This document shows, piece by piece, positions 21,656 to 60,098 of a stretch of 64,000 nt of DNA. The position numbers were made by a program, and so were the translations under genes. Location: NCBI GenBank assembly GCA_003223645.1, contig QHVT01000010.1, forward strand, positions 124,001-188,000, read 5' to 3'. The DNA is from Acidobacteriota bacterium. GTDB taxonomy: Bacteria; Acidobacteriota; Thermoanaerobaculia; Gp7-AA8. The stretch's first letter is position 1. Each line of letters begins with the position of its first letter. Under the pieces are notes generated by a model, which made no database searches, was not told where the DNA came from, and saw only the letters and a list, made by a program, of their open reading frames with translations.

Positions 21656-23881
21656 TTACTGCGAACCGGTTGCCAGCAGATTCCTGCGAATGAACTCCAA
21701 AACCGTCTTCTGCAAGTGCGCGATCGTCTTCTTGTCCGTCACGCTGTGCCTCGTCCGCGGGTACATCATCAGCTCGAACGTTTTCCCCTCGCGCTGCAGC
21801 TCGTAGGCGAACTGATACGTGTTCTGCGCGTGGACGTTGTCGTCCGTGGTTCCGTGGATCAACAACAACCGGCCGTGCAAATTCTTGGCGGCGAAACGCG
21901 GCGAGCTTTTGCGATAGCCGTCGGGGTTGTTCTGCGGCATGAGCATATAGCGCTCGGTGTAGATGCTGTCGTAGTCGCGCCAGTCGGCGACCGTGCCGCC
22001 GGCGATGCCGGCCGAGAACATCGTGCTGTGCGTCAGCGCGTAGCTGACCATGAAGCCGCCGTAGCTCCACCCCTGCAGCATCACGCGGTTGCCGTTGACG
22101 TACGGCTGTGACTTGAGCCAGGTGATGCCGTCCTCGATGTCGCGCAGCTCCAGTTCGCCGAAATTCTTGTAGACCGGCCACGCCGACACCGCGCCTTTGC
22201 CGCTCCCCGTGCGGTTGTCGCATAGCCAGACGATCACGCCCTGCTGCGCGAGGAAGTAGTGGAACAGCCCGCGCGTCGACGACTTGTCCCACGCGTTCTT
22301 CACCATCGGCGCGTGCGGGCCGGCGTAGAGCGGCTGATAGACGGGATACTTTTTCGCCGGATCGAAATTCGCCGGCTTGATGATCATCGCTTCCATCGGG
22401 AAGCCGTCGCGCGTCTTCACCTGCAAGAGCTCCGCGCGCGGAAGGTTATACGCAGCCAGCGCCGCGACTTTGTTCTCGTCCACGACGTGCGCGAGCTTGC
22501 CGGCGGAGTCGTACACGCGCACCTGATCGGGCGTACGCAGATCGCTCCACTTGTCGGCGTAGCGCGTGAGCGACGGATTGAACGTCGCCGCGTGCGTCCC
22601 TTCCTGCGACGACAGCCGCTCGAATCCGCTGCCGTCGAGTCTCACGCGATCGACGTCCTGTCCGATCGCGCTGCGCTCGGTCGACGAAAAGTAAACATAC
22701 GTACCATCGCTGCCGTAGAGGTCGTGCACTTCCCAGTCGCCGCTCGTGAGCTGCTTCTCGAGCGTGCCGTCGTTTTTGTAGCGATAGATGTGGCGCCATC
22801 CGCTGCGCTCGCTCTGCCAGAGAAACGAGCCGTCCTTCAGCCAAACCGGATTCGCGATGGGATCGACCCATGTCTTCGTCGTCTCGTGAATGACGGTGGA
22901 GGACAGGCAATCCTGCCTGTCCCGGACAGGCGAGATCGCCTGTCTCCCACAATCCGCGAACACGAGATCGAGCCACGTCTGCTCGCGGTTCTGCACCTGA
23001 TAGCTGAGCGTGTCGCCGTTCCAGGCGACGTTGACGATCAGGAACTCGCCGGACGAATAGCGCTCGTTGTCGATCGCCGTCGCCTTGCCGCCGCTCGCCG
23101 GCACGACGAACAGCTTCGCGCGCGGATTCGGATCGCCGGCCCTCGGATAGTCGTAGACCTTCACGTCGAGGGGATACGGGATGTGATCGACGATCGTGAA
23201 CTCCGGCACCGGACCCTCGTCGAGCTGCAGAAACGCAATGCGCGACGAATCGGGACTCCACCAATAGCCCTTGAAGATCCCGCGGCCGTACACCTCTTCC
23301 TGATAGACGTAGTCGAGCTTCCCGTTGAGAAGCTGCGCGTTGCCATCGGTCGTGAGCTGGCGCTCGCGGCCGGCGAGGTCGACGACGAACAAGTTGTTCG
23401 CGCGAATGAACGCGATTCGTTTCCCGTCCGGACTGAACGTCGCTTCCTCTTCCTTCCCCGCCGTCGACGTCACACGCGTCACGCTGTTGCGGCCGAGGTC
23501 GTAGAGATACAGGTCGTCGGCGAGATCGAGAACGATCGCGCTCTTCTTCGCATCGAACTTCAGGTCATCGAGCTCCGTCGCCGACTTCGCGACGTCCGCC
23601 GAGAGTCCCGCATCCTGCAACGCGCGCTGCAGCTTCGCCTTGTCGAAGAACGGCCGCGACTTGCCGGTGGCAGTGTCGAAGAGACGCCACTCCACGAGAT
23701 CGCCCTTCTCATCCGTCTTCGGCCAGACGAACGTCGAGTCATCGATCCACTCGAACCCGCTCTGGATCGCGCCGCTGAAGTACACGCGCTGCGTCGGGTC
23801 ATACAGCGCATCGAACGTGATCTCTTTTTTCTGCGCGAGGAGAGGAAGAGCTACGAGAAGCAGAAGGAGGAGTCTGCGCAT
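21656..23881 (-). CDS. dipeptidyl peptidase IV-like S9 serine peptidase
   Basis: Exported 741-residue prolyl-oligopeptidase-family enzyme (S9B) that removes X-Pro or X-Ala dipeptides from peptide N-termini. A signal peptide (MRRLLLLLLVALPLLAQ) is followed by an eight-bladed propeller region and the alpha/beta-hydrolase domain with nucleophile S606 in GWSYGGFM, aspartate in IHGTTDDNVH and histidine in RTRHSV. The start at 23881 opens on the signal peptide; a longer reading enters an upstream repeat. Between the strands LDLVFAD and VIHETTKTWVD there is an in-frame insert encoded by a palindromic element (22896-22950). It adds about 18 residues that family members are not expected to have. Confidence 0.92.
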   Translation of the reverse strand: MRRLLLLLLVALPLLAQKKEITFDALYDPTQRVYFSGAIQSGFEWIDDSTFVWPKTDEKGDLVEWRLFDTATGKSRPFFDKAKLQRALQDAGLSADVAKSATELDDLKFDAKKSAIVLDLADDLYLYDLGRNSVTRVTSTAGKEEEATFSPDGKRIAFIRANNLFVVDLAGRERQLTTDGNAQLLNGKLDYVYQEEVYGRGIFKGYWWSPDSSRIAFLQLDEGPVPEFTIVDHIPYPLDVKVYDYPRAGDPNPRAKLFVVPASGGKATAIDNERYSSGEFLIVNVAWNGDTLSYQVQNREQTWLDLVFADCGRQAISPVRDRQDCLSSTVIHETTKTWVDPIANPVWLKDGSFLWQSERSGWRHIYRYKNDGTLEKQLTSGDWEVHDLYGSDGTYVYFSSTERSAIGQDVDRVRLDGSGFERLSSQEGTHAATFNPSLTRYADKWSDLRTPDQVRVYDSAGKLAHVVDENKVAALAAYNLPRAELLQVKTRDGFPMEAMIIKPANFDPAKKYPVYQPLYAGPHAPMVKNAWDKSSTRGLFHYFLAQQGVIVWLCDNRTGSGKGAVSAWPVYKNFGELELRDIEDGITWLKSQPYVNGNRVMLQGWSYGGFMVSYALTHSTMFSAGIAGGTVADWRDYDSIYTERYMLMPQNNPDGYRKSSPRFAAKNLHGRLLLIHGTTDDNVHAQNTYQFAYELQREGKTFELMMYPRTRHSVTDKKTIAHLQKTVLEFIRRNLLATGSQ
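22896..22950. repeat. Palindromic element inside the DPP IV coding sequence
   Basis: The arms 22896-22922 and 22924-22950 match at 22 of 27 positions as reverse complements (GTGGAGGACAGGC and GCCTGTCTCCCAC). The reading frame stays open through the element and encodes a Cys/Arg-rich stretch (CGRQAISPVRDRQDC). It resembles the element inside the M1 aminopeptidase gene, with the same GACAGGC/GCCTGTC words. Confidence 0.88.
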
Positions 23882-23888
23882 GGCGCGC

Positions 23889-24030
23889 GGGACTCTAGCA
23901 GAACGCGACTGCACGCCTGTGCTCCCGCGCCCGCGCCCGTGCCCGCTCCCGTGCCCCGGGCGGGTGGCGAGCGAAGCGACAGAACCCACCCACCCCGGGC
24001 GCGGGAGCGGGCACGGGCGCGGGAGCGGGC
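23889..24030. repeat. CGCGCCCG-array inverted repeat, copy 3, with conserved flank
   Basis: The inverted array spans 23921-24030, with a core in reverse orientation (GGCGAGCGAAGCGACAGAAC). To its left, bases about 23889-23916 (beginning GACTCTAGCAGAACGCGACT) are identical to the left flank of copy 4 at about 32480-32507. The unit is therefore larger than the palindrome alone. It lies in the divergent gap between DPP IV and the phosphatase gene. Confidence 0.85.
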
Positions 24031-24134
24031 GGCGGGTACACGTCGGAACGCCGCCGTCTTCGGCGGCTGGCCCGGCGGCGTCCTCGCGGACGCGTGTAGG
24101 CGCATAATCATGCACATACTCACAAAAGTTTGAT

Positions 24135-25427
24135 ATGCCGCACCAGGACGATCTTGCCGCGCTGCGCCGGGAGAACGATCGGCTCCGCCGCGCCGTGCAG
24201 GAGCTCTCGACGCTGAACGATCTCTCGCGCGCGATCGGTGCCTCTCTGCGATCGGACGAAGTGATGCAGACGATCATCAATCGCTCGCTCAAGGCGGTCA
24301 ACGCGGAGCAGGGGGTCGTCACGCTTTTCGATCGGCGTGATGGAGATCGCGTCGACGCGAACACGCTCGTGCGCGCGAACGAGAGCAGCATCGGCGCCCC
24401 GCGCTCGTTTCACGCGACGCAGGCGATCCTCGGCTGGATGCAACTCAACAAACGGCCGCTCGCGATCGCCGACACGGCCGCGGATCAGCGTTTCAGCGGA
24501 GTTGCATGGGACGAAAACATCCGTTCGCTCCTTTGCGTGCCGCTGCTCATCAAATCGCAATTGACGGGCGTCCTGGCGGTCTACAACAAGAAAAACGGCC
24601 GGCAGTTCGACGCCGATGACGAGCGCCTGCTCGCGATCATCGCAACGCAGTCCGCGCAGATCGTCGACAACGCGCGCCTGTACGAAGAAGAGAAGGCGCT
24701 GTCGGCGATGCGCGAGCAGGTCCGCCTCACCGCGCAGATCCACGCGCATCTTCTGCCGCGCGCGAATCCGTCGATCGAGGGATATGAAGTCGCCGGACAC
24801 AGCGTCGCCGCGCAGGACATGGGCGGCGACTACTTCGACTACAACGCGCTGCCGAACGGCGCGTGGTCGATCTCCGTCGGCGACGTCTCGGGCAAGGGAC
24901 TTCCCGCCTCCCTCCTGATGGCGAACGTGCAGGGAGTGATTCGTTTGCTGTCGTCCCTGAACGTGCCGCCGGCAGAAGTGATGAGCCGCGCGAATGCGCT
25001 GCTCTGCCGCAGCACGCCGCAGGAGAAATTCGTGACGTTCTTCTACTCGACGCTCGATCCGTCGAGTCACGCGTTGACGTTCTGCAACGCCGGCCATACG
25101 CCGACGTTCCACTTCCATCGCGACGGCATCGCGCGCCTCGTCACCGGCGGCGCCGTTCTCGGCATGCTCGAGACATTTGCCTATCGACAGGACTCGGTGA
25201 CGCTGGACCGCGGAGACGTCGTCGTCATCTATTCGGACGGCGTGACCGACGCGATGGATGCGGACGAGCGCGAGTTCGGCGAGCAGAGATTGCTGGACGT
25301 CGTAGACGGACGTCGAGACGAGTCCGCATCCTCCATTCTCGACACGCTGCTCGAAGCCGTGCGACACCACCAGCATCAACAGCCGCAGTACGACGACATC
25401 ACTGCCGTCGTCCTCAAACGCACATGA
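24135..25427 (+). CDS. GAF-SpoIIE (PP2C-type) phosphatase, RsbU-like
   Basis: Cytoplasmic 430-residue signalling phosphatase. A short N-terminal coiled coil (LAALRRENDRLRRAVQEL) leads into a GAF sensor domain (about residues 30-190). A linker helix and a SpoIIE/PP2C domain follow, with metal-binding motifs MGGDYFDY, VGDVSGKGLPASLLM, FCNAGHTP and VVVIYSDGVTDAMD. Enzymes of this type dephosphorylate anti-sigma antagonist proteins or other Ser/Thr phosphoproteins. Its TGA overlaps the ATG of the kinase gene (ATGA), so a phosphatase and a kinase are made together, probably acting on the same pathway. Confidence 0.93.
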   Translation: MPHQDDLAALRRENDRLRRAVQELSTLNDLSRAIGASLRSDEVMQTIINRSLKAVNAEQGVVTLFDRRDGDRVDANTLVRANESSIGAPRSFHATQAILGWMQLNKRPLAIADTAADQRFSGVAWDENIRSLLCVPLLIKSQLTGVLAVYNKKNGRQFDADDERLLAIIATQSAQIVDNARLYEEEKALSAMREQVRLTAQIHAHLLPRANPSIEGYEVAGHSVAAQDMGGDYFDYNALPNGAWSISVGDVSGKGLPASLLMANVQGVIRLLSSLNVPPAEVMSRANALLCRSTPQEKFVTFFYSTLDPSSHALTFCNAGHTPTFHFHRDGIARLVTGGAVLGMLETFAYRQDSVTLDRGDVVVIYSDGVTDAMDADEREFGEQRLLDVVDGRRDESASSILDTLLEAVRHHQHQQPQYDDITAVVLKRT

Positions 25428-28400
25428 TCGGGCGCACACTGGGCCACTACCGCGTCACCGATCGCCTCGGCGAGGGCGGGATGGGCGTCGTCTATCGCGC
25501 CGAGGATTTGAAACTCGGACGAATCGTCGCGCTGAAGTTCCTGCCACCTGAGCTGACGCGCGATCCCGAGTCGAAGAAGCGCTTCGAGCGCGAGGCGAAG
25601 GCCGCCTCGCAGCTCGATCATCCGAACATCTGCACGATCCTCGACTTCGGCGAGAGCGAAGACGACGGGCAGATGTACCTGGCGATGCCGTGCTACGACG
25701 GCGAGTCGCTCGCGCAGCGCGTGGAGCATGGTCCGATGCCGCTCGCCGAGGCAGCCAGGATCATCGAGCAGATCGCGCGGGGACTGGGGAAAGCGCACGC
25801 CAACGGCATCGTTCATCGCGACATCAAGCCGGACAACGTGATGGTGACGCGCGACGGCGTCGCGAAGATCCTCGACTTCGGTCTGGCCAAGCTCCAGCTG
25901 GCGTCGCGCATCACCAAGACGAATACGACCGTCGGCACCGCGGCGTACATGCCCCCCGAACAAATCCGCGGAGAAAACGTCGGACCGCAGGCCGACATCT
26001 GGTCCCTCGGCATCGTCTTCTTCGAACTGCTGACCGGCCGGCTGCCGTTCCGCGGCGAGTACATCGAAGCGCTCGCGTACGCGATCCTTAATGAACAGCC
26101 GGAGAGCATCCCCGAACATCCGGACGCCGATCGCATCATCAAGCGGATGCTGCGCAAGGATCCGCTGCAGCGTTACCAGACCATCGACGAATTCCTCGCG
26201 GACCTGCTCGAGCGGAAACGCTCGCGCGTCGATAAACATCAGCTCCCGAACGGCGCGCGACTCGGGCCGTATGAAATCGTGAAGCCGGTCTCGACGAGCG
26301 TCTTTCTCGCGAAAGACACACGCCTCGCTCGTGAAGTCGCGATCAAAGTTCTGCCGCCCGAGTTTCCGGAGATCGATCGCTTCCGCCGCGACGCGAAAGC
26401 GATCTCGCACCTGACGCATCTGAATGTCTGCACGCTCTTCGACGTCGGCGAGCAGGAAGGCGTCGATTACGTGGTGATGGAGTTTCTCGAGGGCGAGACG
26501 CTCGCGCAGAAGAAGACTCCGCTGCCGGTTGCGCAGGTGCTGAAGATCGGGATGCAGATCGCCGACGGCCTCGCGGCCGCGCACAAACACGGAGTCGTGC
26601 ATCGCGACCTGCGGCTTGCGAACGTGATGATCACGAAGTCGGGTGTCGCGAAGCTGCTCGACTTTGGACTCGCACGCGACGCGGGCGCGTACCTCTCGCC
26701 GGAGCAGATCGAAGGAAAAGAAGCCGACTCGCGCGCCGACATCTTCGCGCTCGGCCTCCTGCTGTACGAGCTCGCCACCGGCCGCCCGCCCTTCAACGCC
26801 GCGAGCAAAGCGGGGCTCATGGCCGCGATCCTCGAGCACGACGCCGCGCCGCTTCGACAAATCCGTTCCGCGATTCCGCCCGCGCTCGATCGCTTGATCC
26901 GCACCTGCCTCGAGAAAAATCCCGACGACCGCTTCTCGTCCGCGCACGACGTGATGCTGGAACTGCGAGCGATGATGGAGACACCGTCGGTCGTTCGTAA
27001 ACGCGTTCCGTACGGCGCGATCGCGGCGGTGCTCGTCATCGCCGCGATCGGATACGCGCTCTATCGCTTCGGCGGCACGCGTGCCGTCGCTCCGCGTCCG
27101 CGCACGTTCACGCAGCTCACGTTCACGGAAGGGCTCAACACGTTCCCGACGATCGCGCCCGACGGAAAGTCGATCGCGTACGTTTCGGCGCAGTCGGGAC
27201 AACGCGACATCTACATCCAGCGCGTCGACGGACGGACGGCCGTCAATCTCACGAACGACTCGCCCTACGACGACTCCGAGCCCGCGTTTTCGTTCGACGG
27301 ATCACAGATCGCGTTTCGGTCCGAGCGCGACGGAGGCGGCATCTTCATCATGGGCGTCACCGGCGAGTCGGTGCGGAGGCTGACGGATTTCGGGCATAAC
27401 CCGACTTGGTCGCCGGACGGAATGCGCATCGCGGTCTCGACGGCCGGAGTCGAAGTGAAGCCGCACATGCGCACCGTCGTGCCGGGCGAGCTGTGGCTGA
27501 TCGACACACGAACCGGCGAAAAGAAGCCGCTCACTCAGCATGGAAGCGGCGGCCCCGACTTCGGACGCGACAGCGATGCCGTGCAGCCGAGCTGGTCGCC
27601 GCACGGCAAGCGGATCGCGTTCTGGGGAATCTCCGATCAGCAATGGACGCGCGATCTCTGGACGATCGATCCCGATGCGCCCGAGCCGAAGCGGACGGTC
27701 GTGCGCGTGACCTCCGATCCCGCGCTGGATTGGAATCCCGTCTGGTCGCCGGACGGGAAGTATCTCTACTTCGGCAGCAATCGCGACGGAACGCTGAACC
27801 TCTGGCGGATCGCAATCGATGAAACGAAGGGAATGCCGGCGGGAGCGCCTGAGCCGCTGTCGCTGCCCGCGCCGCTGGCCGCCAATTTCAGTTTCTCGCG
27901 CGACGGCGACCTCGCCTACGTTGCGATGACGCGCTCGCACCGCCTGCTGGCATTACCGATCGATGCGAACAACACGCGCATGGGGTCGCCGCGGCCGCTG
28001 TTCGGCACCTCGCAGGAGATCGCGAGCTTTCAACCGTCGTCCGATGGGCAGATGATCGCGTTCATGACCGTCAGCGGCGCGAGCGAGAATCTGTTCGTCG
28101 CCAATCCGGACGGCAGCCGTTTGCGGCGGCTGACGAACGATGCCGTCAAAGATCGCGCGGTGATCTGGTCGCCCGACGACAAGACGCTCTACTTCTATTC
28201 GAATCGCGATGGTCCGTATCACATCTGGAGCATCCGAGCCGACGGCAGCAGCCTCGCGCGTGTGACCGACGACGCGGATCTGCAGCGTCACGGCCTCCGC
28301 GATCTCTATTTGTCGGATGTCTCGCCCGATGGACGGACGCTCGTCGCGCTCGGCGAGCGCTCGATCGCACTCGTACACCTCGACCGGCCGATCGCGAGTC

Positions 28401-28789: not shown

Positions 28790-28856
28790 GTTTTTCACCG
28801 CACCAGACACTCCTTAGATGAGGGCTTCCGGTCCGTACCCGAACAAAGGAGTGGTG

Positions 28857-32442: not shown

Positions 32443-32631
<189 letters not shown>

Positions 32632-35540: not shown

Positions 35541-35659
35541 CCTTTCCCGCGCCTCTTTCCCCGTGCCCGTGCCCGCGCCCGCTCCCGCGCCCGGGGCGGG
35601 TGGGTAACGTAGTCGCTTCGCGCCGCCCGCCCCGGGCGCGGGCGCGGGCGCGGGAAAGG
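35541..35659. repeat. CGCGCCCG-array inverted repeat, copy 5
   Basis: It extends from CCTTTCCCGCGCC to GGCGCGGGAAAGG around the core GGTAACGTAGTCGCTTCGCG. It lies in the divergent gap between acnA and the M1 aminopeptidase gene and leaves about 40 bases on either side for promoters. Confidence 0.85.
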
Positions 35660-35701: not shown

Positions 35702-38314
35702 GTGAAACGCGCCTTTTTCGCTTCGCTCCTCCTCCTCTTCTTCGCCGTCACCCTCGCCGCGCAAACAGTCCGCCTCGGCAATGACGTCGTTCCGCTCGCG
35801 CAGAGCATCGTGCTCGATGCCGATCCGCGCAAAGACGACTACAGCGGTTCGACGACCGTCGACGTGCAGGTGAAGAAGCCGGTGACGTCGTTTCTCATTC
35901 ATGCGGTCGATCTGACGGCGAACACGATCACGCTCGACGACATCGCGCTGGCGCAGGCGAAGGGACAGGATGGAACGTTGCAGCTCACCGCGCCCGCGCC
36001 GCTCACCGCCGGCAAGCACGTTCTGAAAATCGCGTTCACGAACAAGTTCAACCGCCAGTCGGTCGGCCTCTACAAAGTCATCTCGAAAGGCGAGCCGTAT
36101 CTCTTCACGCAGCTCGAAGCGATCGACGCGCGGCGCGCGTTTCCGTGCTGGGACGAGCCGGGATTCAAGATTCCTTACCGCCTTACCGTCACGATTCCCG
36201 ACTTCGATGACGCGGTGTCGAACACGCCGATCGCGTCGGAGTTGAAAGCGAACGGCACGAAGACGCTTCGCTTCGCGCAAACGAAGCCGCTGCCGTCGTA
36301 TCTCATCGCGCTCGCCGTCGGACAGTTCGACTTCACGCCGATCAACGGCATGAGCGTTCCGGGCCGTGTCGTCGCACCGAAGGGACAAGGCAGGCTGGCC
36401 GCGTACACGGCGCAGATCACGCCGCCGATCGTCGCGGCCCTCGAGAAGTACTTCAACGGAAAGTATCCGTTCGAGAAACTCGATCTCATCGCCGTTCCCG
36501 AATTCTGGGCCGGCGCGATGGAGAATCCCGGCGCGATCACGTATCGCGACACGGTCCTGCTCCTCGACTCCGCCACCGCGACGCCGACGCAGAAGCAAAC
36601 CGACGCCAAGATCACGGCGCACGAGCTCTCGCACATGTGGTTCGGCGATCTCGTGACGATGGAGTGGTGGGACGACTTCTGGCTCAACGAGTCGTTCGCC
36701 GACTGGATGGGCGACAAGATCACCGACGTGGCGTTCCCCGAATTCGAGACCGGCATCTCGGAGCTCGACACGATCGGGGCGATCATGAACCTCGACGCGC
36801 GTCCCGCGACCGCGCCGATTCGCAAGCGCAACGCGACTCCGGCCGACGCGATCGCGAACGTCGGCATCGCCTACAACAAAGGCAAAGCCGTGCTGTCGAT
36901 GTTCGAGAATTGGGTCGGCCGCGAGAAGTTCCGGCAGGGCGTGCTCGATTACCTCGAGGCCAACGCGTGGGGCAACGGCAACGAGTCCGAATTCTTCGCC
37001 GCCGTCAGCAAACACGCGCCGAAAGGCTTCGCGCCGGCGATGGAGAGTTTTCTCAATCAGCCCGGCATTCCGCTCGTGACGGTGGAGCTCACCGGCCCGA
37101 ACGAGATTCGTCTCTCGCAATCGCGCTTCTCGACCTCGGAGGCAACGCCGGAGACGTGGCAGATTCCGGTATCGATCCGCTACCCCGGCGGCACGACATC
37201 GGTCCTCCTCGACGCGCCATCGAAGACCATCAAGCTCGACTCCGGTGTAGGACAGGCTTTCCAGCCTGTCCCCCGGGCGCAGGTTGGAAAACCTGCTCCA
37301 CACCAAGTCCCGAAACTCACTTGGGTGTTCCCGCAGGCGAACGCCTTCGGCTACTACCGCTGGAAGATGCCGCTGGACGCGATGTCGAAGCTCGCCGAGG
37401 AGAGCGCGAGCGTGCTGACGCCGGCGGAGCGGCTCGCGTTCGCGGGCAATCTCACTGCGCTGTTCCGCAACGGCACGATTCACGGCGACGCGTTCCTCGG
37501 TCTCTTCGCGCATCTCACCAACGATCCCGATCCGAACGTCCTCTCCGCGCTCCTCGGCGATCTCGATCTGATCCACAACGCGTTCGAGAGCGACGCCACG
37601 CATCCGCTGCTCAGCGCGTACGTGCGCAAAACCTTCGGTCCCGCGCTCGATCGCGTCGGCTTCGAGCCGAAGGCGGGAGAGCCGCAGACAGTGACGATCG
37701 TCCGTCCGCAACTCATCCGCACGCTCGCGCTCTACGGCGACGACGAACGCGTCTGGTCCTTCGTACGCGAGCGCCTGCCGAAGTTTCTCGCCGATCCGTC
37801 CTCCGTCCATCCGACACTCGCCAGCACCGTGATTACCCTCGGCGCAGTCCACGGCGACGAAGCGCTCTTCAACGAATACAAGCGGAGGTTCGAAGCAGCC
37901 GTCAATCCCGGCGAGCGCACGCGCTACGTCACCGCACTCGGACGCTTCACCGACCCGCAGCTGCGCAGCCGCGCGCTCGAATACGGACTCACCGAGGCCG
38001 TCCGCGCGAACGAGCTCGCCGCGCTATGGGGCACGACCAGCCTCGCCACGTCGAAGGAGCGCGACGAATTCTTCGACTGGGTCCTCGCCCACTTCGACGC
38101 CATCACCAAACGCCTCCCGCCCGCCTTCGCCGGCAGCCTCGCGAGCGCCGCCAACGGCTGCGAGCCCGAGCGCGTCGCCAAAATGCGCCAGTTCTTCGCC
38201 AGCCGGAACCTCGAAGGCACCGGCCGCGCGCTCACGAGAGTCACCGAGCAGGTGAACGAATGCGCGGCGCTGCGCGCGCGGGAGATGGATGCGGTGGCGC
38301 GGGCGCTGCGATGA
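35702..38314 (+). CDS. M1 family zinc aminopeptidase
   Basis: Exported 870-residue gluzincin aminopeptidase. A signal peptide ([20 protein letters not shown]) precedes the N-terminal beta domain. The exopeptidase motif is GAMENPG, the zinc site is H307-E-L-S-H311 with E330 in [10 protein letters not shown], and the catalytic tyrosine is probably in [13 protein letters not shown]. The C-terminal ERAP1-like helical domain is complete. The start is GTG at 35702. At residues about 515-534 the frame passes through a palindromic element (37245-37303) that encodes [19 protein letters not shown], placed between the beta-sandwich linker and the helical domain. M1 enzymes trim peptide N-termini. One class III lanthipeptide leader peptidase is of this type, but this copy may simply be a general peptidase. 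Confidence 0.94.
37245..37303. repeat. Palindromic element inside the M1 aminopeptidase gene
   Basis: The left arm GTGTAGGACAGGCTTTCCAG pairs with the right arm that ends AACCTGCTCCACAC, around CCCCCGGGCG. It stays in frame. The intergenic relative at 61165-61265 has the same plan (GTGTAG...TTTTCCAACC...GGCTGGAAAGCC...CCACAC). Confidence 0.9.
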
Positions 38315-39164: not shown

Positions 39165-39255
39165 GCAGGCGCAAAGGCTCAAAGGCCGCTCGCCCGGCGT
39201 GGCTGCGCGGCGGCCTCCTCTGAGCCCTTGAGCCTCTGCGCCTTTGAGCCTCTCT
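39165..39255. repeat. Inverted array of GGCTCAAAGG words, overlapping the acyltransferase 3' end
   Basis: The left arm GCAGGCGCAAAGGCTCAAAG is mirrored by the right arm CCTTGAGCCTCTGCGCCTTT around GGCGTGGCTGCGCGGC. It sits between two convergent genes. The acyltransferase reading frame continues through most of it before reaching its stop at 39179, so the last ~23 residues of that protein are repeat-encoded. Confidence 0.8.
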
Positions 39256-40672
39256 CCGGCCAGCCGCGGCGCTTCACATCCTCGAACGACACGAGCGCGT
39301 TCGCGTAGTAATCGCGGAGCAGCTTCTCCTCCGGATTCCATTCCCACGCGTCCTCGATGGTGCCGATACCACCCTGATCGAAGAGATCGTCGTGCCACTG
39401 ATCGACCGGCACGATCAGCTTCCGCAGCGTGAGCACGAAGTGCGCGGCGCGCCAGATTTCCTTCGGCGTCTTCTCGCGCAGCAGCCACGGCCGGGCCCTC
39501 CACTCTTCGCGCAACTGCGCGATCCCCGCGAAGATCTGCTCCTCCGTCATCACGCCGTTGCGCGCAAACAGCGTCGCGACGAGCGACACCGGCGTGACCG
39601 GAAACGCGTTCGAGATCTCCGTCATCACGAGCTCCGCGAGCTGTTGAATCGCGGCCTTGCGCTCTTCGAACATCGGCGCGAGCGCGTCGGGGTGAGCGCG
39701 GATGAAATCGTCGACGAGCACCGGCTCGCCGAACGTCACGATCGCGTAGCCGTAGCGCGAGAAGCGGCTGAAGAGTCCGCGGATCGAGCTCTTGAAGAGA
39801 TAGCTGAACGTCGTCCGCAGCTTCTCCCCTTTCGTGCGCCGCTCTTCGCGTCCGATCAGCTCCTCGGTGAGATTGCGGTCTTCGAGCACGCGGTCGTAAT
39901 TCACGACCGTCGGGATGAGATACAGCGGCGCGGTGAACGTCGGATCGCTCTTCGCCATTACGAGATAATCGAGCATCCCCAGCTTCGGCTTCTGAAATGC
40001 GCCGTCGCGCGTCAGCCCGCCCTCGATGAACACGCCCTGCGTCACGCCGTGCTTGGTGATCGTCTGCACGAACTTCGAGAGGATCGCGTGATACAGCGGC
40101 TCGCGATAACGGCGCCGCACGAAATATCCGCCGAACCATTTGAAGACGTGATTCAGCGGCCACACGCGCGCCCACTCGCCGATCGCGTACGACAGCGAGA
40201 TGAACTTGAACAGCATGTGCGCGACCAGCACGTAGTCCGCGTTCGAGCGGTGATTGATGATGAACACCACCGACGCGTCTCTCTGCAGATGCTCCGTGAA
40301 ATCGCGGATCGGCCGCCGCTCGACCACGACGCGGTAGAGAAAATTCATGATCGCGCGCGCGAGCGGCGCGCCGATGCGGTAGTACGCCAGCAGATTGAAC
40401 TTCGGCACGATCTCGCGCAGATACTTCCCCGCCTGCTCCCGCGCCTCATCGATCGAGACGTGATGCTCCTTCGCGTACCCCTGCACCGTCTGCACAACCT
40501 CGGCGCTCCCAAACACCTCCAACTCGATCGCCGCGTACCGGCTCTTCAACTTGAAGCGATTGATGCGAATCCGCCGCGCGCGCTGGAATCGACGGGCATG
40601 CTTCTTCGCGTACACGAACACCGGAATGGCGAGCGCGACCAAAACGGCGGCGAGGATGAGGAGAGCAGTCAT
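39179..40672 (-). CDS. PlsB-like glycerol-3-phosphate/1-acyl acyltransferase
   Basis: 497-residue membrane-associated acyltransferase. After an N-terminal transmembrane helix (TALLILAAVLVALAIPVFVY) the PlsC-type domain has block I, IINHRSNADYVLV (H-x4-D), block II GGYFVRRRYREPLY, block III GVFIEGGLTRDGAFQKPKLG and block IV near APLYLIPTVVNYD. This layout resembles PlsB-type glycerol-3-phosphate acyltransferases more than short PlsC. The start at 40672 opens on the helix; a longer reading from 40780 enters a repeat. The C-terminal ~23 residues (ERGSKAQRLKGSEEAAAQPR region) come from the inverted repeat and have probably replaced the original tail. Confidence 0.88.
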   Translation of the reverse strand: MTALLILAAVLVALAIPVFVYAKKHARRFQRARRIRINRFKLKSRYAAIELEVFGSAEVVQTVQGYAKEHHVSIDEAREQAGKYLREIVPKFNLLAYYRIGAPLARAIMNFLYRVVVERRPIRDFTEHLQRDASVVFIINHRSNADYVLVAHMLFKFISLSYAIGEWARVWPLNHVFKWFGGYFVRRRYREPLYHAILSKFVQTITKHGVTQGVFIEGGLTRDGAFQKPKLGMLDYLVMAKSDPTFTAPLYLIPTVVNYDRVLEDRNLTEELIGREERRTKGEKLRTTFSYLFKSSIRGLFSRFSRYGYAIVTFGEPVLVDDFIRAHPDALAPMFEERKAAIQQLAELVMTEISNAFPVTPVSLVATLFARNGVMTEEQIFAGIAQLREEWRARPWLLREKTPKEIWRAAHFVLTLRKLIVPVDQWHDDLFDQGGIGTIEDAWEWNPEEKLLRDYYANALVSFEDVKRRGWPERGSKAQRLKGSEEAAAQPRRASGL

Positions 40673-40695
40673 GCCGAGGTCGCGATAGTGTAATG

Positions 40696-40757
40696 GAGTG
40701 GTGCGCGCTTCCAGCGCGCCTTTGGGTGGGGAGGCGCGCCGGAGACGCGCACCACTC
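40696..40757. repeat. GAGTGGTGCGCGC-family inverted repeat, intergenic copy
   Basis: It runs from GAGTGGTGCGCGCTTCCAGC to CGCGCCGGAGACGCGCACCA plus CTC. The two other copies of this family in the window are inside the glycerol kinase coding sequence (53608-53676 and 54166-54225). It occupies the divergent gap between the acyltransferase and the 223-aa gene. Confidence 0.9.
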
Positions 40758-40791
40758 CACGGGGCATCGCGTTTGAACATACCTGACTGCG

Positions 40792-44745: not shown

Positions 44746-44883
44746 GGTGCTGAGTGACGGGTGCTGAGTACTGGGTGCCGGGTGCTGAGTGCTGGGTGCC
44801 GGGTGCTGAGTGCTGGGTGCTGCGTAAGAACGTACGCACGCAGCACGCAGCACCCAGCACTCGGCACTCAGCACCCGGCACAT
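44746..44883. repeat. Inverted array of GCTGGGTGCC words within the export operon
   Basis: The left arm is six or seven near-tandem copies of a ~8-bp word (GTGCTGAG/TGCTGGGTGCCG). The right arm is the mirror array (CAGCACCCAGCACTCGGCAC), with GTAAGAACGTACGC at the centre. Siblings lie at 46132-46210 and 63749-63832. The mRNA joining two permease genes would have to contain this hairpin. Confidence 0.9.
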
Positions 44884-52712: not shown

Positions 52713-52748
52713 ATCGCGCCACTCCACGCCGGCGAATAGAATCTGCCG

Positions 52749-54326
52749 ATGCCCGCCGCCATCCTCGCGCTCGACCAGGGCACGACCAGCTCGCGCGCGA
52801 TCGTGTTCGACGAGGCGGGACGCCCGCTCGCCAGCGCGCAGCGCGAGTTCCGGCAGTTCTATCCGCAGCCCGGCTGGGTCGAGCACGACGCGACGGAGAT
52901 CTGGTCCACGCAGAGCGCGGTGATGGCGGAAGCGATCGCGCTTGTAAAAAGTATGTCACCGCGCGTGGAGATCGCGGCGATCGGCATCACCAATCAGCGC
53001 GAGACGACAGTCGTGTGGGATCGCGAGTCCGGCGTGCCGGTCGCGAACGCCATCGTGTGGCAGGATCGAAGAACTGCCGCGATGTGCGACGGTCTTGCGG
53101 CGGGAGGACACGAAACGTTCGTGCGCGATCGCACGGGTCTCGTGATCGACGCGTACTTTTCCGGCACGAAGCTGCGCTGGCTCCTCGATCGCTGCGATCG
53201 CGATCCCGAGCGGCTCGCGTTCGGCACGATCGATTCCTGGCTGGTGTGGAACCTCACGCGCGGCGCGGCGCACATCACCGACGTCACAAACGCGTCGCGC
53301 ACGATGCTCTTCGACATCCACCGCGCTGAGTGGGACGACGAGCTCCTCGCGCTCCTCGGCGTTCCGCGCTGCGTCCTGCCGCAAGTGAAATCGTCGAGCG
53401 AGATTTACGCAAAGACCACTGACGGCATCCCGATCGCCGGCATCGCCGGCGATCAGCAGGCGTCACTGTTCGGCCAGCGCTGCACGCGCGCGGGGATGGC
53501 GAAGAACACCTACGGCACCGGCTCGTTCGTGGTGATGAACACGGGCGAGCACGCGGTGTCGTCGAAGAACGGACTCCTCGCCACGATCGCGTGGCAACTG
53601 GGCGATGGAGTGGTGCGCGCCTCCGGCGCGCATTCGGGCGGGGGAACGAAAGGCGCGCCGGAGGCGCGCACCACTCGATGCTACGCGCTCGAAGGCAGCA
53701 TCTTCATCACCGGCGCGGCGGTGCAATGGCTGCGCGACGGCCTCGGCATCATTCGCACCGCGCCGGAAGTCGAAGCGCTCGCGGCGTCGGTGCCGGACAG
53801 CGGCGGCGTGGTGGTCGTGCCCGCGTTCACGGGCCTCGGCACGCCGCACTGGGACGCGTACGCGCGCGGCACGATCAGCGGCATCACGCGCGGCACGAGC
53901 GCGGCGCACATCGCGCGCGCGACGCTGGAGTCGATCGCGCTGCAAACCGCGGACGTGCTCGACGCGATGCAGATCGACTCCGGCATCGCCATCGACGAGC
54001 TGCGCGTCGACGGCGGCGCGTCGACCAATGATCTATTGATGCAGATGCAGGCCGACATCGCCGGCATCCCCGTTATCCGCACGCGCGTCCCCGAGACGAC
54101 CGCCCTCGGCGCCGCCTACCTCGCCGGACTCGCGGTGGGCTTCTATCGCGACCTGGACGACCTCGGAGTGGTGCGCGCCTCCGGCGCGCTTTCGGGCGGG
54201 GGCGCGCCGGAGGCGCGCACCACTCCGCAGCTCGTCTTCACGCCGCAAATGAGCGCGTCCGAGCGCGCGTCGATGCGCGAGCGATGGGCGCGCGGCGTGG
54301 AGCGTGCCAAAGGCTGGGCGATCTAG
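52749..54326 (+). CDS. glpK: glycerol kinase with two palindrome-encoded inserts
   Basis: 525-residue FGGY kinase that phosphorylates glycerol to sn-glycerol-3-phosphate. Landmarks are [83 protein letters not shown] and the C-terminal [17 protein letters not shown]. Two in-frame inserts of 23 and 20 residues, both starting GVVRASGA, are encoded by copies of the same palindromic element (53608-53676 and 54166-54225). The first splits the normal [15 protein letters not shown] junction. The second sits before the last helix ([11 protein letters not shown]). Catalytic motifs are intact, so the enzyme may tolerate both. The glpF and glpD genes are absent here. Confidence 0.95.
53608..53676. repeat. 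Protein-coding palindromic element 1 in glpK (69 bp)
   Basis: It begins GAGTGGTGCGCGCCTCCGGC and ends GCGCGCACCACTC. Its length is exactly 23 codons. It is read as [20 protein letters not shown] plus RTT. The same family lies in intergenic DNA at 40696-40757. Confidence 0.95.
54166..54225. repeat. Protein-coding palindromic element 2 in glpK (60 bp)
   Basis: It has the same arms as element 1 with a shorter centre, exactly 20 codons. It is read in the same phase and orientation as element 1, giving [20 protein letters not shown]. Confidence 0.95.
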
Positions 54327-54348
54327 ATATACTGACGAACACAATCAC

Positions 54349-55625: not shown

Positions 55626-55658
55626 TGTCCGAATCGCCGCAGCCACTCTATGCCGCAA

Positions 55659-55956
55659 CGAGCGGTGGCTCGCTCGTCGAAGCCGCGGCGGCCGAGGAAT
55701 ACGTGTTCTCGCCCATCGTCCGCCTCTCGATTGATTTTTGAATGTAACGAAGGACGGACGGAATGTCTACCGCCGAGGAGAGCGGGCATCTTGCCCGCCT
55801 CACCGGGGGCGGGCGAGACGCCCGCTCTCCTATTGCCTTCGAAAGCGTTCCACACCGTCTATACGATCTCTTCGGATCGAGAATACGCACGGCGGGCTGT
55901 TGCGATTCTTCTCGCTAGCTAGAGTTTCAGCTCGCGGAGCCGTTCGACGGGATCTC
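55659..55956. other. Gene-free stretch with an AGGAGAGCGGGC inverted repeat
   Basis: I see no convincing gene in this ~300-bp gap. At 55776-55831 lies a full copy of the AGGAGAGCGGGC family (mirror GCCCGCTCTCCT). Directly after the MNT gene, the minus strand reads GTGAGAGATCCCGTCGAACG and stops after 14 codons. This is the position where a HEPN (HepT) partner would start, so the toxin gene may have been lost, but the evidence is thin. Confidence 0.55.
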
Positions 55957-56256: not shown

Positions 56257-56274
56257 TTCACCACAACGCCGCGC

Positions 56275-59070
56275 TCACCGCCGCCATTCATCGATCACGT
56301 TCGCGATCAGTCCCGTCCATCCCGTCTGATGGGAGGCGCCGAGGCCTTCGCCCGTATCGCCGTTGAAGTACTCGTGGAACCAGACGAGATGGCGCCAGTG
56401 CGGGTCCTTTGCGAAGAGCTCGGACTTGCGCGTGCCGCGCGGACCGAAGACGGGGCGGTAGCCGTCGGCGTCGGGGAGGAAAATGTCGATGAGACGGTCG
56501 GCGAGGGTGCGCGCGACGCCGGTGAGTGTCATGGTCTGGGCGGCGGGAGGGACGAGCGACGCGACGCGGATGCCGCGCGTGTGGACGTGCGTCGCGCCGG
56601 CGCCGATGCCTTCGCTCGCGCGGGTGTCGCTCTCCGCATCGCGCGCGACCTCTTCGTCGACTTCGACGCGCACGAACTCGCCGAATGCCTTCTCCAGCTT
56701 GCGCAGCGTCTCGATCATCAGGAACGTCGTCGGGAACCACACCGGTCCGCGCCAGTTGCTGTTGCCGCCTTTCAGAATCACCGTCGCCTCGGCGGGCTCG
56801 TATCCGACCGACGCATCGCCGAGGGTGAAGGGATGCTCTTCGTGAAACTTGCTGAGGCTGCGCATGCCGAACGGCGAGAGGAATTCGTCGGGCTCGGCGA
56901 CGCGCGCGAGAAGATGCTGCAGCTGGTTCTGATCGACGACGGCGAGGACGTGCGTGAAGTCGTGATCGTTCTTCACCGTCGTCACGCACTGCTCGACGAT
57001 CTCGCGGCGATGTTTGAGGAACCAGTCGAGGTTCTCGCGGAAGGACGGGAACGGCTCGATCCACTTTCCTTCCAGGCGCTCGACGGCGTAAAGCGGAATG
57101 AGTCCGACGAGCGATCGCACGCGGATCGGCGCGACCGAGCCGTCGCCGAATCGGAGGATGTCGTAGAAGAATCCATCCTCGGCATCCCATAGCGTGCGAT
57201 TGCCGCGCACCATCTTCATCGCCGCGCCGATGTAGACGTAGTGCTCGAAGAATTTCGTCGCCAGACTCTCGTACGTCGAGTTCGTCTTCGACAGCTCGAG
57301 CGCGATGCGCATCATCACGAGCGAGAACATGCCCATCCAGCCGGTGGCGTCGCTTTGCTCGAGCACCGCGTCGCCCAACGGCTTGCTGCGGTCGTAGAGC
57401 GCGATGTTGTCGAGGCCGAGGAAGCCGCCTTCGAAGACGTTGTTTCCTTCGCGATCGACCTTGTTCACCCACCAGGTGAAATTCAGCAGCAGCTTGTGAA
57501 AACACTTCTCGAGGAACGCGACGTCCGCCTTGCCGCCGCGGATGCGATCCATGTTGTAGACGCGCCACACCGCCCACGCCTGCACGGGCGGATTGAGATC
57601 GGAGAATTCCCATTCGTACGCGGGGATCTGTCCGCTCGGATGCTGGAACTGCTCGAAGAGCATGAGCCAGAGCTGCTCCTTCGCGAATTCGCCGTCGATG
57701 AGCGCGTAGACGACGGAGTGAAACGCGAGGTCCCACGCCGCGAACCACGGATACTCCCACTTGTCCGGCATCGAGAGGATGCGCATGGAGTTGAGGTGGC
57801 GCCACCGCGAGTTGCGCCCGCGCTGCCGCTCCGCGGGCGGCGGCGCGGCGGGATCGTCGCCGTCGAGCCAGACGTCGACGTCGAAGAGATAGCTCTGCTT
57901 GTTCCAGAGCATCCCGGCGAAGGCCTGGCGCTGGATGTTTTTCTCCTCGTCGCTGGCGTTGGGCGGGTGGATGGAGGAGTAGAAAGCGTCGGCTTCCGCT
58001 CGACGCGCGTCGACGATCGAAGCGAGCTCTGTGGAGCGGCGGCCGCTTCGGCCGCCGAGCTCTCGCGAGACCCCGGCGCCCGAAGCGGGCGCCGCTCCAC
58101 CAGGACCGAGGCGCATCAACAGCGTCTTCGACTCGCCCGGATCGAGCTCGTAGCGAATCCACGCGCACGCCTTTGTTCCCGTTTGCTCCGGGTTCACCGC
58201 TTCGCGTTCATCATTGATGATGTAGCGATGAAATGCGTCCTTCACGTAGGGCGTGCGGGAGGAGACGCCGTATAAGCGCTCTTTGTTGGTCTCGTTGTTC
58301 GTGAAGAGCAGCTTCGCTTCGCCGGGAACTTCGAGCACGTATTGTCCGATGCGCGTGTCGTGCAGCAGGCCGCTGAGCGGCGGTGCGTGGGTGTCGTCGG
58401 CGACCAGGTTTCCGTCGACCGCGCGGATGACCGGCGGCGTGACGTCGCCGGGACTCCACGACCACGTGTTGCGGAACCAGAGGTGCGGGATGAGGTGCAG
58501 CGGTGCGCGGTCAGGGCCGCGATTGTGCGCGGTGACGCGGAAGACGAGCGTCTCCTCATCCTCTTTCGCGATCTCGATCTCGATGTCGAAGTAGCGGCCG
58601 TCGTCGAAGACGCCGCTGTCGATCAATTCGAACTCGGGATCGCGCAAACCGCGCCGGCGGTTTTCGTCAAGCAGTTGACGATATGGATATTCGGCTTGCG
58701 GATACTTGTAGAGCATCCGCTGATAGGCGTGACTCGGCAGCGCGTCGAGGTAGAAGTAACACTCCTTCACGTCCTCGCCGTGATTCCCCTCCGTCGGCAC
58801 GAGTCCGAAATAGCGCTCCTTCAGAATCGGATCGCGCTCGTTCCAGAACGCCATCGCCCAGCAGAGGATCTGGTAGCGGTCGCAGACGCCGGCGATGCCG
58901 TCCTCGCCCCAGCGGTACGCCTTCGACCGCGCGTGATCGTGCGGAAAATAGCGCCACGGATCGGAGTCCGCGCTGTAGTCCTCGCGCACCGTCCCCCACG
59001 CGCGGTCGGCGAGGTACGGCCCCCATGCGCGCCAGCGGGAGTGGGCGGAGAGACGGTCGCGCTCGGACAT
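56275..59070 (-). CDS. MGH1/GH63-type glycoside hydrolase
   Basis: 931-residue cytoplasmic glucosidase-like protein of the MGH1 (mannosyl-oligosaccharide glucosidase-related) family. The N-terminal beta-sandwich carries [20 protein letters not shown] and [15 protein letters not shown]. The C-terminal (alpha/alpha)6 barrel contains [40 protein letters not shown] and [16 protein letters not shown], with [20 protein letters not shown] near the end, the region that holds the catalytic acids in the family. The start at 59070 is chosen because codons further up lie in an inverted repeat. An in-frame palindromic element at 58031-58100 adds a Gly/Ala/Ser/Arg-rich stretch in the linker between the two domains ([20 protein letters not shown]). 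Confidence 0.9.
58031..58100. repeat. Protein-coding palindromic element in the MGH1 gene
   Basis: The left arm GTGGAGCGGCGGCCGCTTCG and the right arm CGAAGCGGGCGCCGCTCCAC match as reverse complements with few differences, and TCTCGCGAG lies at the centre. It belongs to the GTGGAGCGGC family that is intergenic at 6813-6873 and 18006-18083. The host frame stays open. Confidence 0.92.
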
Positions 59071-59145
59071 ATCGGATGGCAGATGGCGGATGACAGATGG
59101 CGAACACGATTCCGCCGTCTGCCATCCGCCATCTGCCATCTGGAA
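59071..59145. repeat. Inverted array of GATGGCAGATGGCG words
   Basis: The left arm CGGATGGCAGATGGCGGATG and following is mirrored by GCCGTCTGCCATCCGCCATC. It starts immediately upstream of the MGH1 start codon and would be read as an N-terminal extension if the upstream ATG at 59139 were used. It is the only copy of this family in the window. Confidence 0.82.
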
Positions 59146-59192
59146 GTTTATGGGTCTAGCAGAAATACGAACGATCGTGCTATTTTCCCATT

Positions 59193-60098
59193 ATGACTGC
59201 CAGCGCCCAGACCGCCGCTCCGCGCCACGTCACTGCTCCCTCCCTCATGCGATCCGCGATCCGGGCGCTGGCGCTCGTCGCGCCGCCGCTCTCCGTGCGT
59301 GCGGCGGCGCGTTTGTTCCGCTTCCCCACCCGCCCGCGCGACGCTGCGCTTCCCGGCGAGCGCTTCGCGGTGCGGATGGTCCGCTCGTCCGAAGGTTTGT
59401 GGGTGCCGCTGCCCTCAGCGGCACCGCGACCGCTGAGGGCAGCGGTCGCCACAAGAGTCGTTCGCGGCGGCGTGCGCGGCGAAGGGCCGCTCGCGATTCT
59501 CGCGCACGGCTGGGGCGGTTCGGAGCAGCAGTTCGACGTCCTCGGCGACTCGCTCGTCGCGCGCGGCTTCCGCGTCGTCACGTTCAGCATGATCGGACAC
59601 GGCGCGTCGAGCGGCCGCTTCTCGTCGATGGTCGAGTTTCGCGACAGTCTGCACGCGGTCGTTTCAAAATTCGGCGAGCCGCACGCGATCGTCGGCCACT
59701 CCCTCGGCGGCGCCGCATGCGCGCTCGCGGTGAGCGAGGGGTTGCACACGAATCGCCTCGTGCTCATCGCCGCGTCCGCGCATCCGTCGCGCTACCTCAA
59801 CAACTTTCTCGACTGGCTCGAGTTTCCGCATCATCTCCGCGCGCGCGTCGTCTGGCATTTCGAGAAGACGCTGCGCTTCGCGTGGAAGCGATTGGATATT
59901 GAAGCCATTGGACCGCTCGTGAATGCGCCGACGCTGATCATCCACGATCGCGCGGATCGCGAGGTGCCGTACTCCGAGGGAGCGGACGCGGCGAGGCTGA
60001 TTCCGGGGGCGCAGCTGGTGACGGTCGAGACCCTCGGACACCGGCGAATTCTCCGCGATGACGGAGTGGTGTCACGCATCGCCGACTTCATCGCATAA
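59193..60098 (+). CDS. alpha/beta hydrolase
   Basis: 301-residue serine hydrolase. The oxyanion motif is LAILAHGWGGSEQQF, the nucleophile elbow is IVGHSLGGAAC, and the late aspartate and histidine lie in LIIHDRADREVPYSEG and LGHRRILRDDG. The N-terminal part has a hydrophobic helix (IRALALVAPPLSVRAAARL). At codons about 70-87 the frame passes through an inverted element (59399-59452) that encodes a Pro/Ala/Arg-rich stretch (GLWVPLPSAAPRPLRAAVAT) just before the first core strand. The substrate is unknown. The KAS III-like gene starts only 8 bases after its stop, so the two are probably one operon. Confidence 0.9.
   Translation: MTASAQTAAPRHVTAPSLMRSAIRALALVAPPLSVRAAARLFRFPTRPRDAALPGERFAVRMVRSSEGLWVPLPSAAPRPLRAAVATRVVRGGVRGEGPLAILAHGWGGSEQQFDVLGDSLVARGFRVVTFSMIGHGASSGRFSSMVEFRDSLHAVVSKFGEPHAIVGHSLGGAACALAVSEGLHTNRLVLIAASAHPSRYLNNFLDWLEFPHHLRARVVWHFEKTLRFAWKRLDIEAIGPLVNAPTLIIHDRADREVPYSEGADAARLIPGAQLVTVETLGHRRILRDDGVVSRIADFIA
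59399..59452. repeat. Protein-coding palindromic element in the alpha/beta hydrolase gene (54 bp)
   Basis: The left arm GTGGGTGCCGCTGCCCTCAG and the right arm CTGAGGGCAGCGGTCGCCAC match as reverse complements with few differences around GCGGCACCGCGACCGC. Its length is exactly 18 codons and the frame stays open. No intergenic copy of this word family is in the window. Confidence 0.9.

What the first reader, a model, noticed from the sequence alone, without database searches (positions are those of the whole stretch)
22896..59452. Palindromic elements inserted in frame in five unrelated enzyme genes
Six long inverted repeats lie inside coding sequence: DPP IV (22896-22950), M1 aminopeptidase (37245-37303), glycerol kinase twice (53608-53676, 54166-54225), MGH1 glucosidase (58031-58100) and alpha/beta hydrolase (59399-59452). 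Each keeps the host frame open. Three have lengths that are exact codon multiples (69, 60, 54 bp). For at least three of the families, the same arms occur in nearby intergenic DNA. Where I know the protein family, the extra residues fall at loop or linker positions and catalytic motifs are intact. Rickettsia palindromic elements are the known precedent for repeats that become peptide segments; I know of no such description for this kind of genome.
Basis: partly seen in the sequence, partly recalled or inferred. Interest (0 to 1): 0.93.

Follow-up and report, generated by a model that had tools for sequence, protein, structure and literature searches.

The report
Mobile palindromes coding peptides inside genes
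In this draft bacterial genome, probably an acidobacterium, families of short mobile DNA palindromes sit inside ordinary enzyme genes without breaking them, so that the cell should read them as extra peptides of about 20-30 amino acids; this is known from a few other bacteria, but here it is frequent and one family prefers a single reading frame.

Summary
All six palindromes are where stated, keep the frame open, and are absent from every relative aligned at the site: glpK 25 of 25 (both sites), DPP IV 18 of 18, M1 19 of 19, glucosidase 19 of 19, hydrolase 8 of 8. They are REP doublets (REPINs): tag plus hairpin, spacer, inverted copy. A 1.6-Mb sample of this genome, probably Acidobacteriota, holds 198 doublets in five families; 53 lie deep inside genes. 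Where coding signal reaches both edges on one strand, 38 of 42 stay in register. Family D (glpK) is in genes in 46 of 65 cases, 41 of the 46 in one frame. One RAYT transposase gene, flanked by family A doublets, is the likely mover of that family. Insertions are often not clean: host residues are lost. REP doublets inside ORFs were reported for Opitutus terrae and others (PMC3733652), and RPEs for Rickettsia. So: a real, intense case of a known kind; I found no report of it for this phylum. New: the frame statistics and a mostly intragenic family. There is no protein evidence.

The parts
22896..22950 (.). Family B REP doublet (ACAGGC hairpins) inside the DPP IV-like gene 21656-23881(-); reads CGRQAISPVRDRQDCLSST, from about residue 310
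   Evidence: net +11 aa; absent in 18 of 18 relatives; in register
37245..37303 (.). Family B REP doublet in the M1 aminopeptidase gene 35702-38314(+); reads [20 protein letters not shown]
   Evidence: absent in 19 of 19 relatives aligned; in register
53608..53676 (.). Family D REP doublet, first site in glycerol kinase 52749-54326(+); reads [24 protein letters not shown]
   Evidence: net +21 aa; absent in 25 of 25 relatives aligned; unit has 203 matches in this genome
54166..54225 (.). Family D REP doublet, second site in glycerol kinase; reads [21 protein letters not shown]
   Evidence: (net +15 aa; absent in 25 of 25 relatives aligned)
58031..58100 (.). Family A REP doublet (the RAYT-flanking family) in the glucosidase-like gene 56275-59070(-); reads [24 protein letters not shown]
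   Evidence: absent in 19 of 19 relatives covering the site; in register; same units flank the RAYT gene
59399..59452 (.). Family C REP doublet in the N-terminal part of the alpha/beta hydrolase ORF 59193-60098(+); reads LWVPLPSAAPRPLRAAVAT, not the frame used by the 10 in-gene C copies of the sample
   Evidence: (absent in 8 of 8 relatives aligned); gene caller starts the gene downstream
18009..18080 (.). Intergenic family A REP doublet
40696..40757 (.). Family D REP doublet at codon 7 of the called gene 39179-40780(-); possibly leader DNA
61206..61265 (.). Intergenic family B REP doublet
55777..55830 (.). Intergenic family E REP doublet
62488..62542 (.). Family E REP doublet at the end of gene 62542-63357(-)

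Best explanation
The palindromes are REP doublets (REPINs), non-autonomous single-strand transposons of at least five families that spread through this genome. Family A was most likely moved by the one RAYT (Y1/HUH) transposase found here; the movers of B-E are unknown. Copies landed in and between genes with the same end structure and no detectable target duplication. Copies that broke reading frames or essential folds were lost. The survivors inside genes are in register, stop-free, and often sit at loops, linkers or termini, where they should be translated as inserts of about 18-33 residues, often with loss of neighbouring host residues. Shown: doublet structure, copy number, absence from relatives, register, frame bias, RAYT gene with flanking family A doublets. 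Inferred: that the RAYT moved them, that selection after insertion (not a frame-aware mechanism) made the bias, and that the peptides are in the mature proteins and roughly neutral.
For: Tag plus hairpin plus inverted partner in all six. 198 doublets in five families in 1.6 Mb. Whole-genome unit counts at up to 2 mismatches: D 203, A 230, C 197, B 55; reversed-pattern control 0 in this genome in all four searches. RAYT gene (Pfam Y1_Tnp, 32.9 bits against a cut-off of 23) with four family A doublets around it, one upstream and three downstream, the first of the three supplying its C-terminal codons. A 53%-identical RAYT of relative G005 is bracketed by two GTAG-tagged doublets of another family. 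Register kept in 38 of 42 same-strand embedded copies, p=1.7e-14 against 1/3. D frame 41 of 46; C frame 10 of 10 called in-gene copies, 10 of 11 with the hydrolase. Same end flanks in and out of genes. No clear excess of target duplications. Absent from the relatives aligned and from the 14 same-genus homologues inspected. Hosts include PurL, a CCA/poly(A)-polymerase-type enzyme, an AroDE-type fusion and histidine ammonia-lyase.
Against: Only one RAYT was found, so families B-E have no visible mover. The RAYT-family A link is not borne out across genomes: G006 holds 161 family A units, but its two matches to this RAYT are partial (51% over 61 residues, 34% over 90), though it has four Y1_Tnp matches; G008 has the nearest RAYT (60%) but no family A units. 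Of 10 RAYT loci scanned (own plus nine relatives, some cut by contig ends) 6 show no strong palindrome and a seventh has one only about 900 bp away. The peptide-composition rule (chosen frame richest in A/G/S/T/P) fails for family B (3 of 12, expected 4.8) and is weak for E (3 of 6). Family A's frame use does not differ from a guessed target's codon phase (12 of 21 against 63%, p=0.65). No expression or protein data; the genome is a draft.
Confidence: 0.85

Rival explanations
1. Family D (and perhaps C) is adapted to live in genes: the element's sequence has been shaped so that it is stop-free and reads as a harmless linker in the frame it usually takes, so that genes are its normal niche, unlike other REPs.
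For: D is in genes in 18 of 23 sample doublets against 49 of 175 for the other families (p=4.5e-6), not different from the coding fraction 0.845 (p=0.39). 41 of 46 in one frame, not explained by the codon phase of a YGCR target (39%; p=2e-12). D is stop-poorer than palindrome-keeping shuffles (2.92 open frames against 2.56 +- 0.07, reached by 0 of 300 shuffles).
Against: Copies are related, so the shuffle test overstates significance. A, B and E are also stop-poorer than their shuffles but mostly outside genes. C is less open than its shuffles (1.61 against 2.21) yet shows the purest frame choice. Selection after insertion alone can give the same picture. 42 of the 65 D doublets come from stretches picked because they hold D.
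Confidence: 0.25
2. The hairpins act as RNA or DNA devices inside genes (ribosome pausing, endonuclease cleavage, supercoil or protein-binding sites), and the peptide is a by-product.
For: Very stable hairpins, down to -65.7 kcal/mol for 69 bases; REPs elsewhere are held to affect supercoiling, termination and mRNA stability (PMC3733652, abstract).
Against: No shared host function among the 16 of 20 examined hosts with a Pfam match. Family D is in no other of the 60 genomes searched bar 3 stray matches. Frame choice within C and D points to the protein as the thing under selection.
Confidence: 0.08
3. Assembly or binning artefact, or pseudogenes decaying after insertion.
For: Draft genome in 51 contigs, 96.67% complete.
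Against: Register is kept in 38 of 42 embedded copies, the opposite of decay; homology to relatives runs on both sides of the element through the length of glpK, DPP IV, M1 and the glucosidase; hosts include housekeeping genes.
Confidence: 0.03

Closest known systems
Intragenic REP dimers of the GTAG superfamily, e.g. Opitutus terrae (Di Nocera et al. 2013, PMC3733652; abstract, sections 15 and 16, and passages read)
   Same: REP dimers inside ORFs, 20-30 encoded residues, sometimes two in one gene, several families per genome, RAYT genes flanked by REPs; O. terrae also has a family tagged mostly GTGG (the text read does not say whether its intragenic copies are of that family)
   Different: Probably a different phylum; here a register test and frame-choice counts were made, one family is mostly in genes, and loss of host residues at the site is seen. 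The counts in that paper's Figure 7 and supplements were not seen, so no numerical comparison is made
REPINs and RAYTs (Bertels and Rainey 2011, PMC3116915, passages read; TnpA-REP biochemistry, PMC8266576, passages read)
   Same: Inverted REP doublets with tagged ends, high copy, RAYT gene flanked by its REP family; a GTGG tag still supported cleavage by one TnpA-REP in vitro, less efficiently
   Different: REPINs of P. fluorescens were analysed in extragenic space; here 53 of 198 doublets are deep in genes
Rickettsia palindromic elements, RPE (Ogata 2000, 2002; neither read, known through passages of PMC10969869 and PMC3733652)
   Same: Palindromic mobile elements in frame in unrelated genes, read as peptide segments, copies in and out of genes
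   Different: RPEs are given as about 150 bp in PMC10969869; here 53-99 bp doublets with GTGG/GTAG tags, and a RAYT gene. No sequence comparison with RPEs was made

Membership tests
REPIN (REP doublet) | Short hairpin with a GTAG-like tag at one end | tested here: met
   B carries GTAG; A, C, D carry GTGG; E carries GGAG, an outlier (tag read by eye)
REPIN (REP doublet) | Units occur mainly as inverted pairs | tested here: met
   198 doublets; 152 single units and 13 other arrangements, among the singles many 6-mismatch hits of D and E that are probably chance
REPIN (REP doublet) | High copy number, same family dispersed | tested here: met
   203, 230, 197 and 55 units for D, A, C, B, reversed-pattern control 0 in this genome; E not counted genome-wide
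REPIN (REP doublet) | RAYT gene flanked by the same family | tested here: met
   Family A only: one doublet upstream, three downstream. B, C, D, E: no RAYT found
REPIN (REP doublet) | Located in extragenic space | tested here: inconclusive
   131 of 198 are not inside genes with 15-bp margins; family D is mostly inside
REPIN (REP doublet) | Excision/transposition by the RAYT | not testable with these tools
   needs reads or biochemistry
RAYT transposase | Y1_Tnp domain with HUH motif and catalytic tyrosine | tested here: met
   PF01797 at 32.9 bits, over the cut-off; MPDHVHLIV and the tyrosine of YIFNNPV in the translation (these motifs are recalled, from no call)
Protein-coding palindromic element (RPE-like behaviour) | Insert in frame in unrelated genes, empty site in relatives | tested here: met
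Protein-coding palindromic element (RPE-like behaviour) | Insert present in the mature protein | not testable with these tools
   needs mass spectrometry
Rickettsia RPE family by sequence | Sequence relatedness to the RPE families | not tested
   no RPE sequence was fetched

The most novel reading that the evidence does not exclude
Family D is a REPIN that has made coding sequence its habitat: a mobile element under selection to encode a benign linker peptide (GVVRASGA...GAPEARTTP) in a preferred frame, so that it can multiply inside genes at little cost, and in passing gives the species new protein loops that no relative searched has.
Probability: 0.22. Interest if true: 0.75.

Novelty: new member of a known kind. 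Interest (0 to 1): 0.5.

Why it matters
It gives a 6.4-Mb genome with 53 deep intragenic REP doublets in a 1.6-Mb sample, two of the families found in no other of the 60 genomes searched apart from stray matches, together with a RAYT gene flanked by one of the families. That makes an old question testable: whether mobile palindromes feed new loops into proteins, and whether they evolve to be harmless when translated. It also warns annotators that such inserts are genome-specific and not part of the enzyme family.

Tried and rejected
Target-site duplications: lengths 3-6 at offsets -3 to 6 on either side, 400 combinations for each of five families; the best excess was in D (7 seen, 2.0 expected, z=3.1), taken as none. 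Codon phase of a guessed target as the cause of frame bias: can account for A, not for C or D. Fuzzy regular-expression counting of units was judged unreliable and replaced. Structure of glycerol kinase: weak model (mean pLDDT 64.9, seven sequences); both inserts lie in low-confidence stretches, which says little. A first register test with loose flanks gave 43 in register, 21 shifted, 18 opposite, 116 undecided; some shifted cases lay at gene junctions, so I then required coding up to both edges (38, 4, 3, with 153 of 198 set aside). Of the 38 at least one (C21 85622-85692) is a false positive at a gene end with a stop inside; the four shifted cases lie at junctions of two called genes. Relatives aligned were part of those fetched: glpK 25 of 29 relative loci (the four left out were distant), M1 19 of 29, hydrolase 8 of 29 (the best by E-value), glucosidase 20 of 29 (the rest second pieces of the same genes). 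Same-genus homologues: 95 host entries queried, 14 pairs passed and were printed; two (C21_672488, C4_333157) show net losses (-51, -35 aa) in diverged stretches and are not informative. Pfam was run on 20 of the 93 host proteins. Papers: search listings only; PMC3733652 abstract, sections 15 and 16 and passages; PMC3116915, PMC8266576, PMC10969869 passages; Ogata 2002 not held.
Full report
What is there. The six inverted repeats are at the stated coordinates and each folds into a strong hairpin, -34.6 to -65.7 kcal/mol. A scan for strong ungapped palindromes found 53 in the first 300 kb of contig C21 and none in a triplet-shuffled copy; three of the six (both in glycerol kinase, and the glucosidase one) pass that scan, the other three have less regular arms and do not. 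The genome has 6,379,710 bases in 51 contigs. Of 18 named relatives of the DPP IV protein, the best 70% identical, 14 are labelled Acidobacteriota or one of its classes, two of them Thermoanaerobaculia, so I place the genome there; that assignment is inferred.

What they are. Each palindrome is built of two inverted copies of a unit made of a tag and a hairpin: GTGGAG-CGGCGGCCGCTTCGGCCGCC (family A, glucosidase), GTGTAG-GACAGGCTTTCCAGCCTGTC (B, DPP IV and M1), GTGGCG-ACCGCTGCCCTCAGCGGTC (C, hydrolase), GAGTGGT-GCGCGCCTCCGGCGCGC (D, glycerol kinase twice), plus a fifth family E. This is the architecture of REP doublets (REPINs). I took 1.6 Mb of the genome as contiguous stretches of four contigs, trained a simple gene caller on it (1,232 genes), and found 198 doublets (A 71, B 50, C 31, D 23, E 22, one mixed), 152 single units and 13 other arrangements. 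Many of the single D and E units match with six mismatches and are probably chance; single units enter no count below.

Genes and intergenic DNA. 72 of 198 doublets lie inside called genes, 67 with 15-bp margins, 53 at least 40 residues from either end of a gene of 120 residues or more. The coding fraction is 0.845, so in-gene copies are depleted overall, as expected under selection. Family D is different: 18 of 23 in genes, against 49 of 175 for the others (p=4.5e-6), and not different from the coding fraction (p=0.39). With 40 further stretches chosen because they hold D, D is inside genes in 46 of 65 doublets, at a gene edge in 14, between genes in 5.

Frame. I asked, without using openness across the element, whether the coding frame of the left flank matches that of the right flank. 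Of 198 doublets 45 had clear coding signal up to both edges: 38 in register, 4 same strand but shifted, 3 opposite strands. 38 of 42 against 1/3 gives p=1.7e-14; other flank sizes gave 39 of 44 and 30 of 32. The shifted ones lie at junctions of two called genes; at least one of the 38 is a false positive at a gene end. Within families one frame dominates: C 10 of 10 called in-gene copies (VxxAALSG...; the hydrolase of the window, which my caller did not count, uses another), D 41 of 46 (GVVRASGA...), B 9 of 12, A 12 of 21. In D nearly all frames are open (2.92 of 3 on average), so openness does not force the choice. For C, D and A the chosen frame is mostly the one richest in A/G/S/T/P (10 of 10, 40 of 46, 16 of 21), but not for B (3 of 12) or E (3 of 6). 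A guessed insertion target could explain A's frame use but not C's or D's.

Empty sites. None of the relatives aligned carries the element: glycerol kinase 25 of 25 at both sites and DPP IV 18 of 18, M1 19 of 19, glucosidase 19 of 19 that cover the site (20 aligned), hydrolase 8 of 8. From about 0.4 Mb of a same-genus genome 14 homologues could be laid against element-bearing proteins and none shows the element. The insertion is often not clean. Net change is close to the element's size in glycerol kinase site 1 (+21 for 23), M1 and the hydrolase, and in C4_369594 (+21 for 23), L271 (+19 for 20) and L272 (+19 for 21). It is much smaller in DPP IV (+11 for 18), a gamma-glutamyltranspeptidase (+3 for 21), C4_63952 (+8 for 31), C6_50358 (+7 for 31) and L259 (+8 for 21). 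Against solved structures, the ornithine-cyclodeaminase-like host gains about 1 residue and PurL about 7, for elements of 18 (my counts). So host residues at the site were replaced or lost, at once or later; I cannot tell which.

Hosts. Of 20 host proteins given to Pfam (of 93) 16 had a match: among them histidine ammonia-lyase, gamma-glutamyltranspeptidase, AraC and NtrC-type regulators, PurL, a poly(A)-polymerase/CCA-type enzyme, an AMP-binding enzyme, a sensor kinase, a Ser/Thr kinase, and a fused 3-dehydroquinase/shikimate dehydrogenase in which the D element (residue 180) lies between the two domains (16-177 and 205-287). Some elements are thus between domains and others within a domain.

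The mover. The genome has one match over the Y1_Tnp cut-off. The gene carries an HVH motif and is flanked by family A doublets, one upstream and three downstream, the first of which supplies the last codons of the gene itself. A 53%-identical RAYT in relative G005 is bracketed by two doublets of another GTAG-tagged family, so such genes do sit with REPs elsewhere too; but of 10 RAYT loci scanned (own included) only 3 show strong palindromes close beside the gene, one more has one about 900 bp away, and 6 show none. Against a simple one-to-one link: G006 has 161 family A units and only partial matches to this RAYT (though four Y1_Tnp matches), and G008 has the nearest RAYT but no family A. Among the 59 other genomes, C has no match and D three stray ones, A is in G006 (with three 2-mismatch matches in G002), B in G009 (109 units), and none of A-D is in the same-genus genome G001, all at up to 2 mismatches. 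The ends have the same flanking bases in and out of genes (for C a T in 61 of 62 ends), so both come from one population. No clear target duplication was seen. These points fit single-strand transposition by a RAYT, which stays inferred.

Known or new. Di Nocera et al. 2013 (PMC3733652) report REP dimers inside ORFs of many species, most in Opitutus terrae, coding 20-30 residues, sometimes two in one gene, and suggest flexible linkers or loops as tolerated sites; O. terrae also has a family whose tag is mostly GTGG. In the passages I read, Acidobacteria appear there only through transposases flanked by other inverted repeats. Rickettsia RPEs behave alike (passages in PMC10969869). My searches found no report of intragenic REPs for this phylum: 'repetitive extragenic palindromic' with 'intragenic' and 'Acidobacteri' returned only PMC3733652, and 'Thermoanaerobaculia' with 'palindromic' returned one genomic survey whose text I did not read. 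I therefore file the find as a new member of a known kind, strongly developed, with three added points: the register statistics, the frame choice, and a family that is mostly inside genes. Whether that family is adapted to coding sequence is open; I give it 0.22.

Noticed in passing
L009:1878-1949 (G000:C4, end of the RAYT gene): The RAYT reading frame runs into its own family A doublet, which supplies roughly the last 25 residues before DDELP ([24 protein letters not shown]).
   Followed up: partly
window 44775-44881, 63748-63817, 59075-59140, 5430-5508: Arrays of 7-base and similar units (GGGTGCT, GATGGCG/GATGGCA, AGGCTCATAGGCTC) that run forward and then reverse-complement, forming long palindromes; units of this kind are among the commonest 14-mers of the sample.
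   Followed up: no
window 16129-16219, 23924-24029, 32520-32625, 35572-35654: Long GC-rich palindromes built of CCCGCG/CCCGTG hexamers around a similar core (about GGGGCGGGTGG...CCGCCCGCCCC), mostly between called genes; a different repeat kind from the REP doublets.
   Followed up: no
window 1151-1255 and 20162-20266: Inverted repeats with ends TGTCATCCCGAGCG and AGTGTCATTCCGAG, the latter with GGATCCTTCGCCGTC; 14-mers of both recur in the sample.
   Followed up: no
sample of G000: 14-mers of a motif GGTTGCAAATGAAAACAGGC occur 31 to 39 times in 1.6 Mb; comparatively AT-rich in a GC-rich genome, nature unknown.
   Followed up: no
L061:8952-9887 (ornithine-cyclodeaminase-like protein): A family C peptide appears to stand in for a native stretch of similar length rather than being added.
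   Followed up: partly
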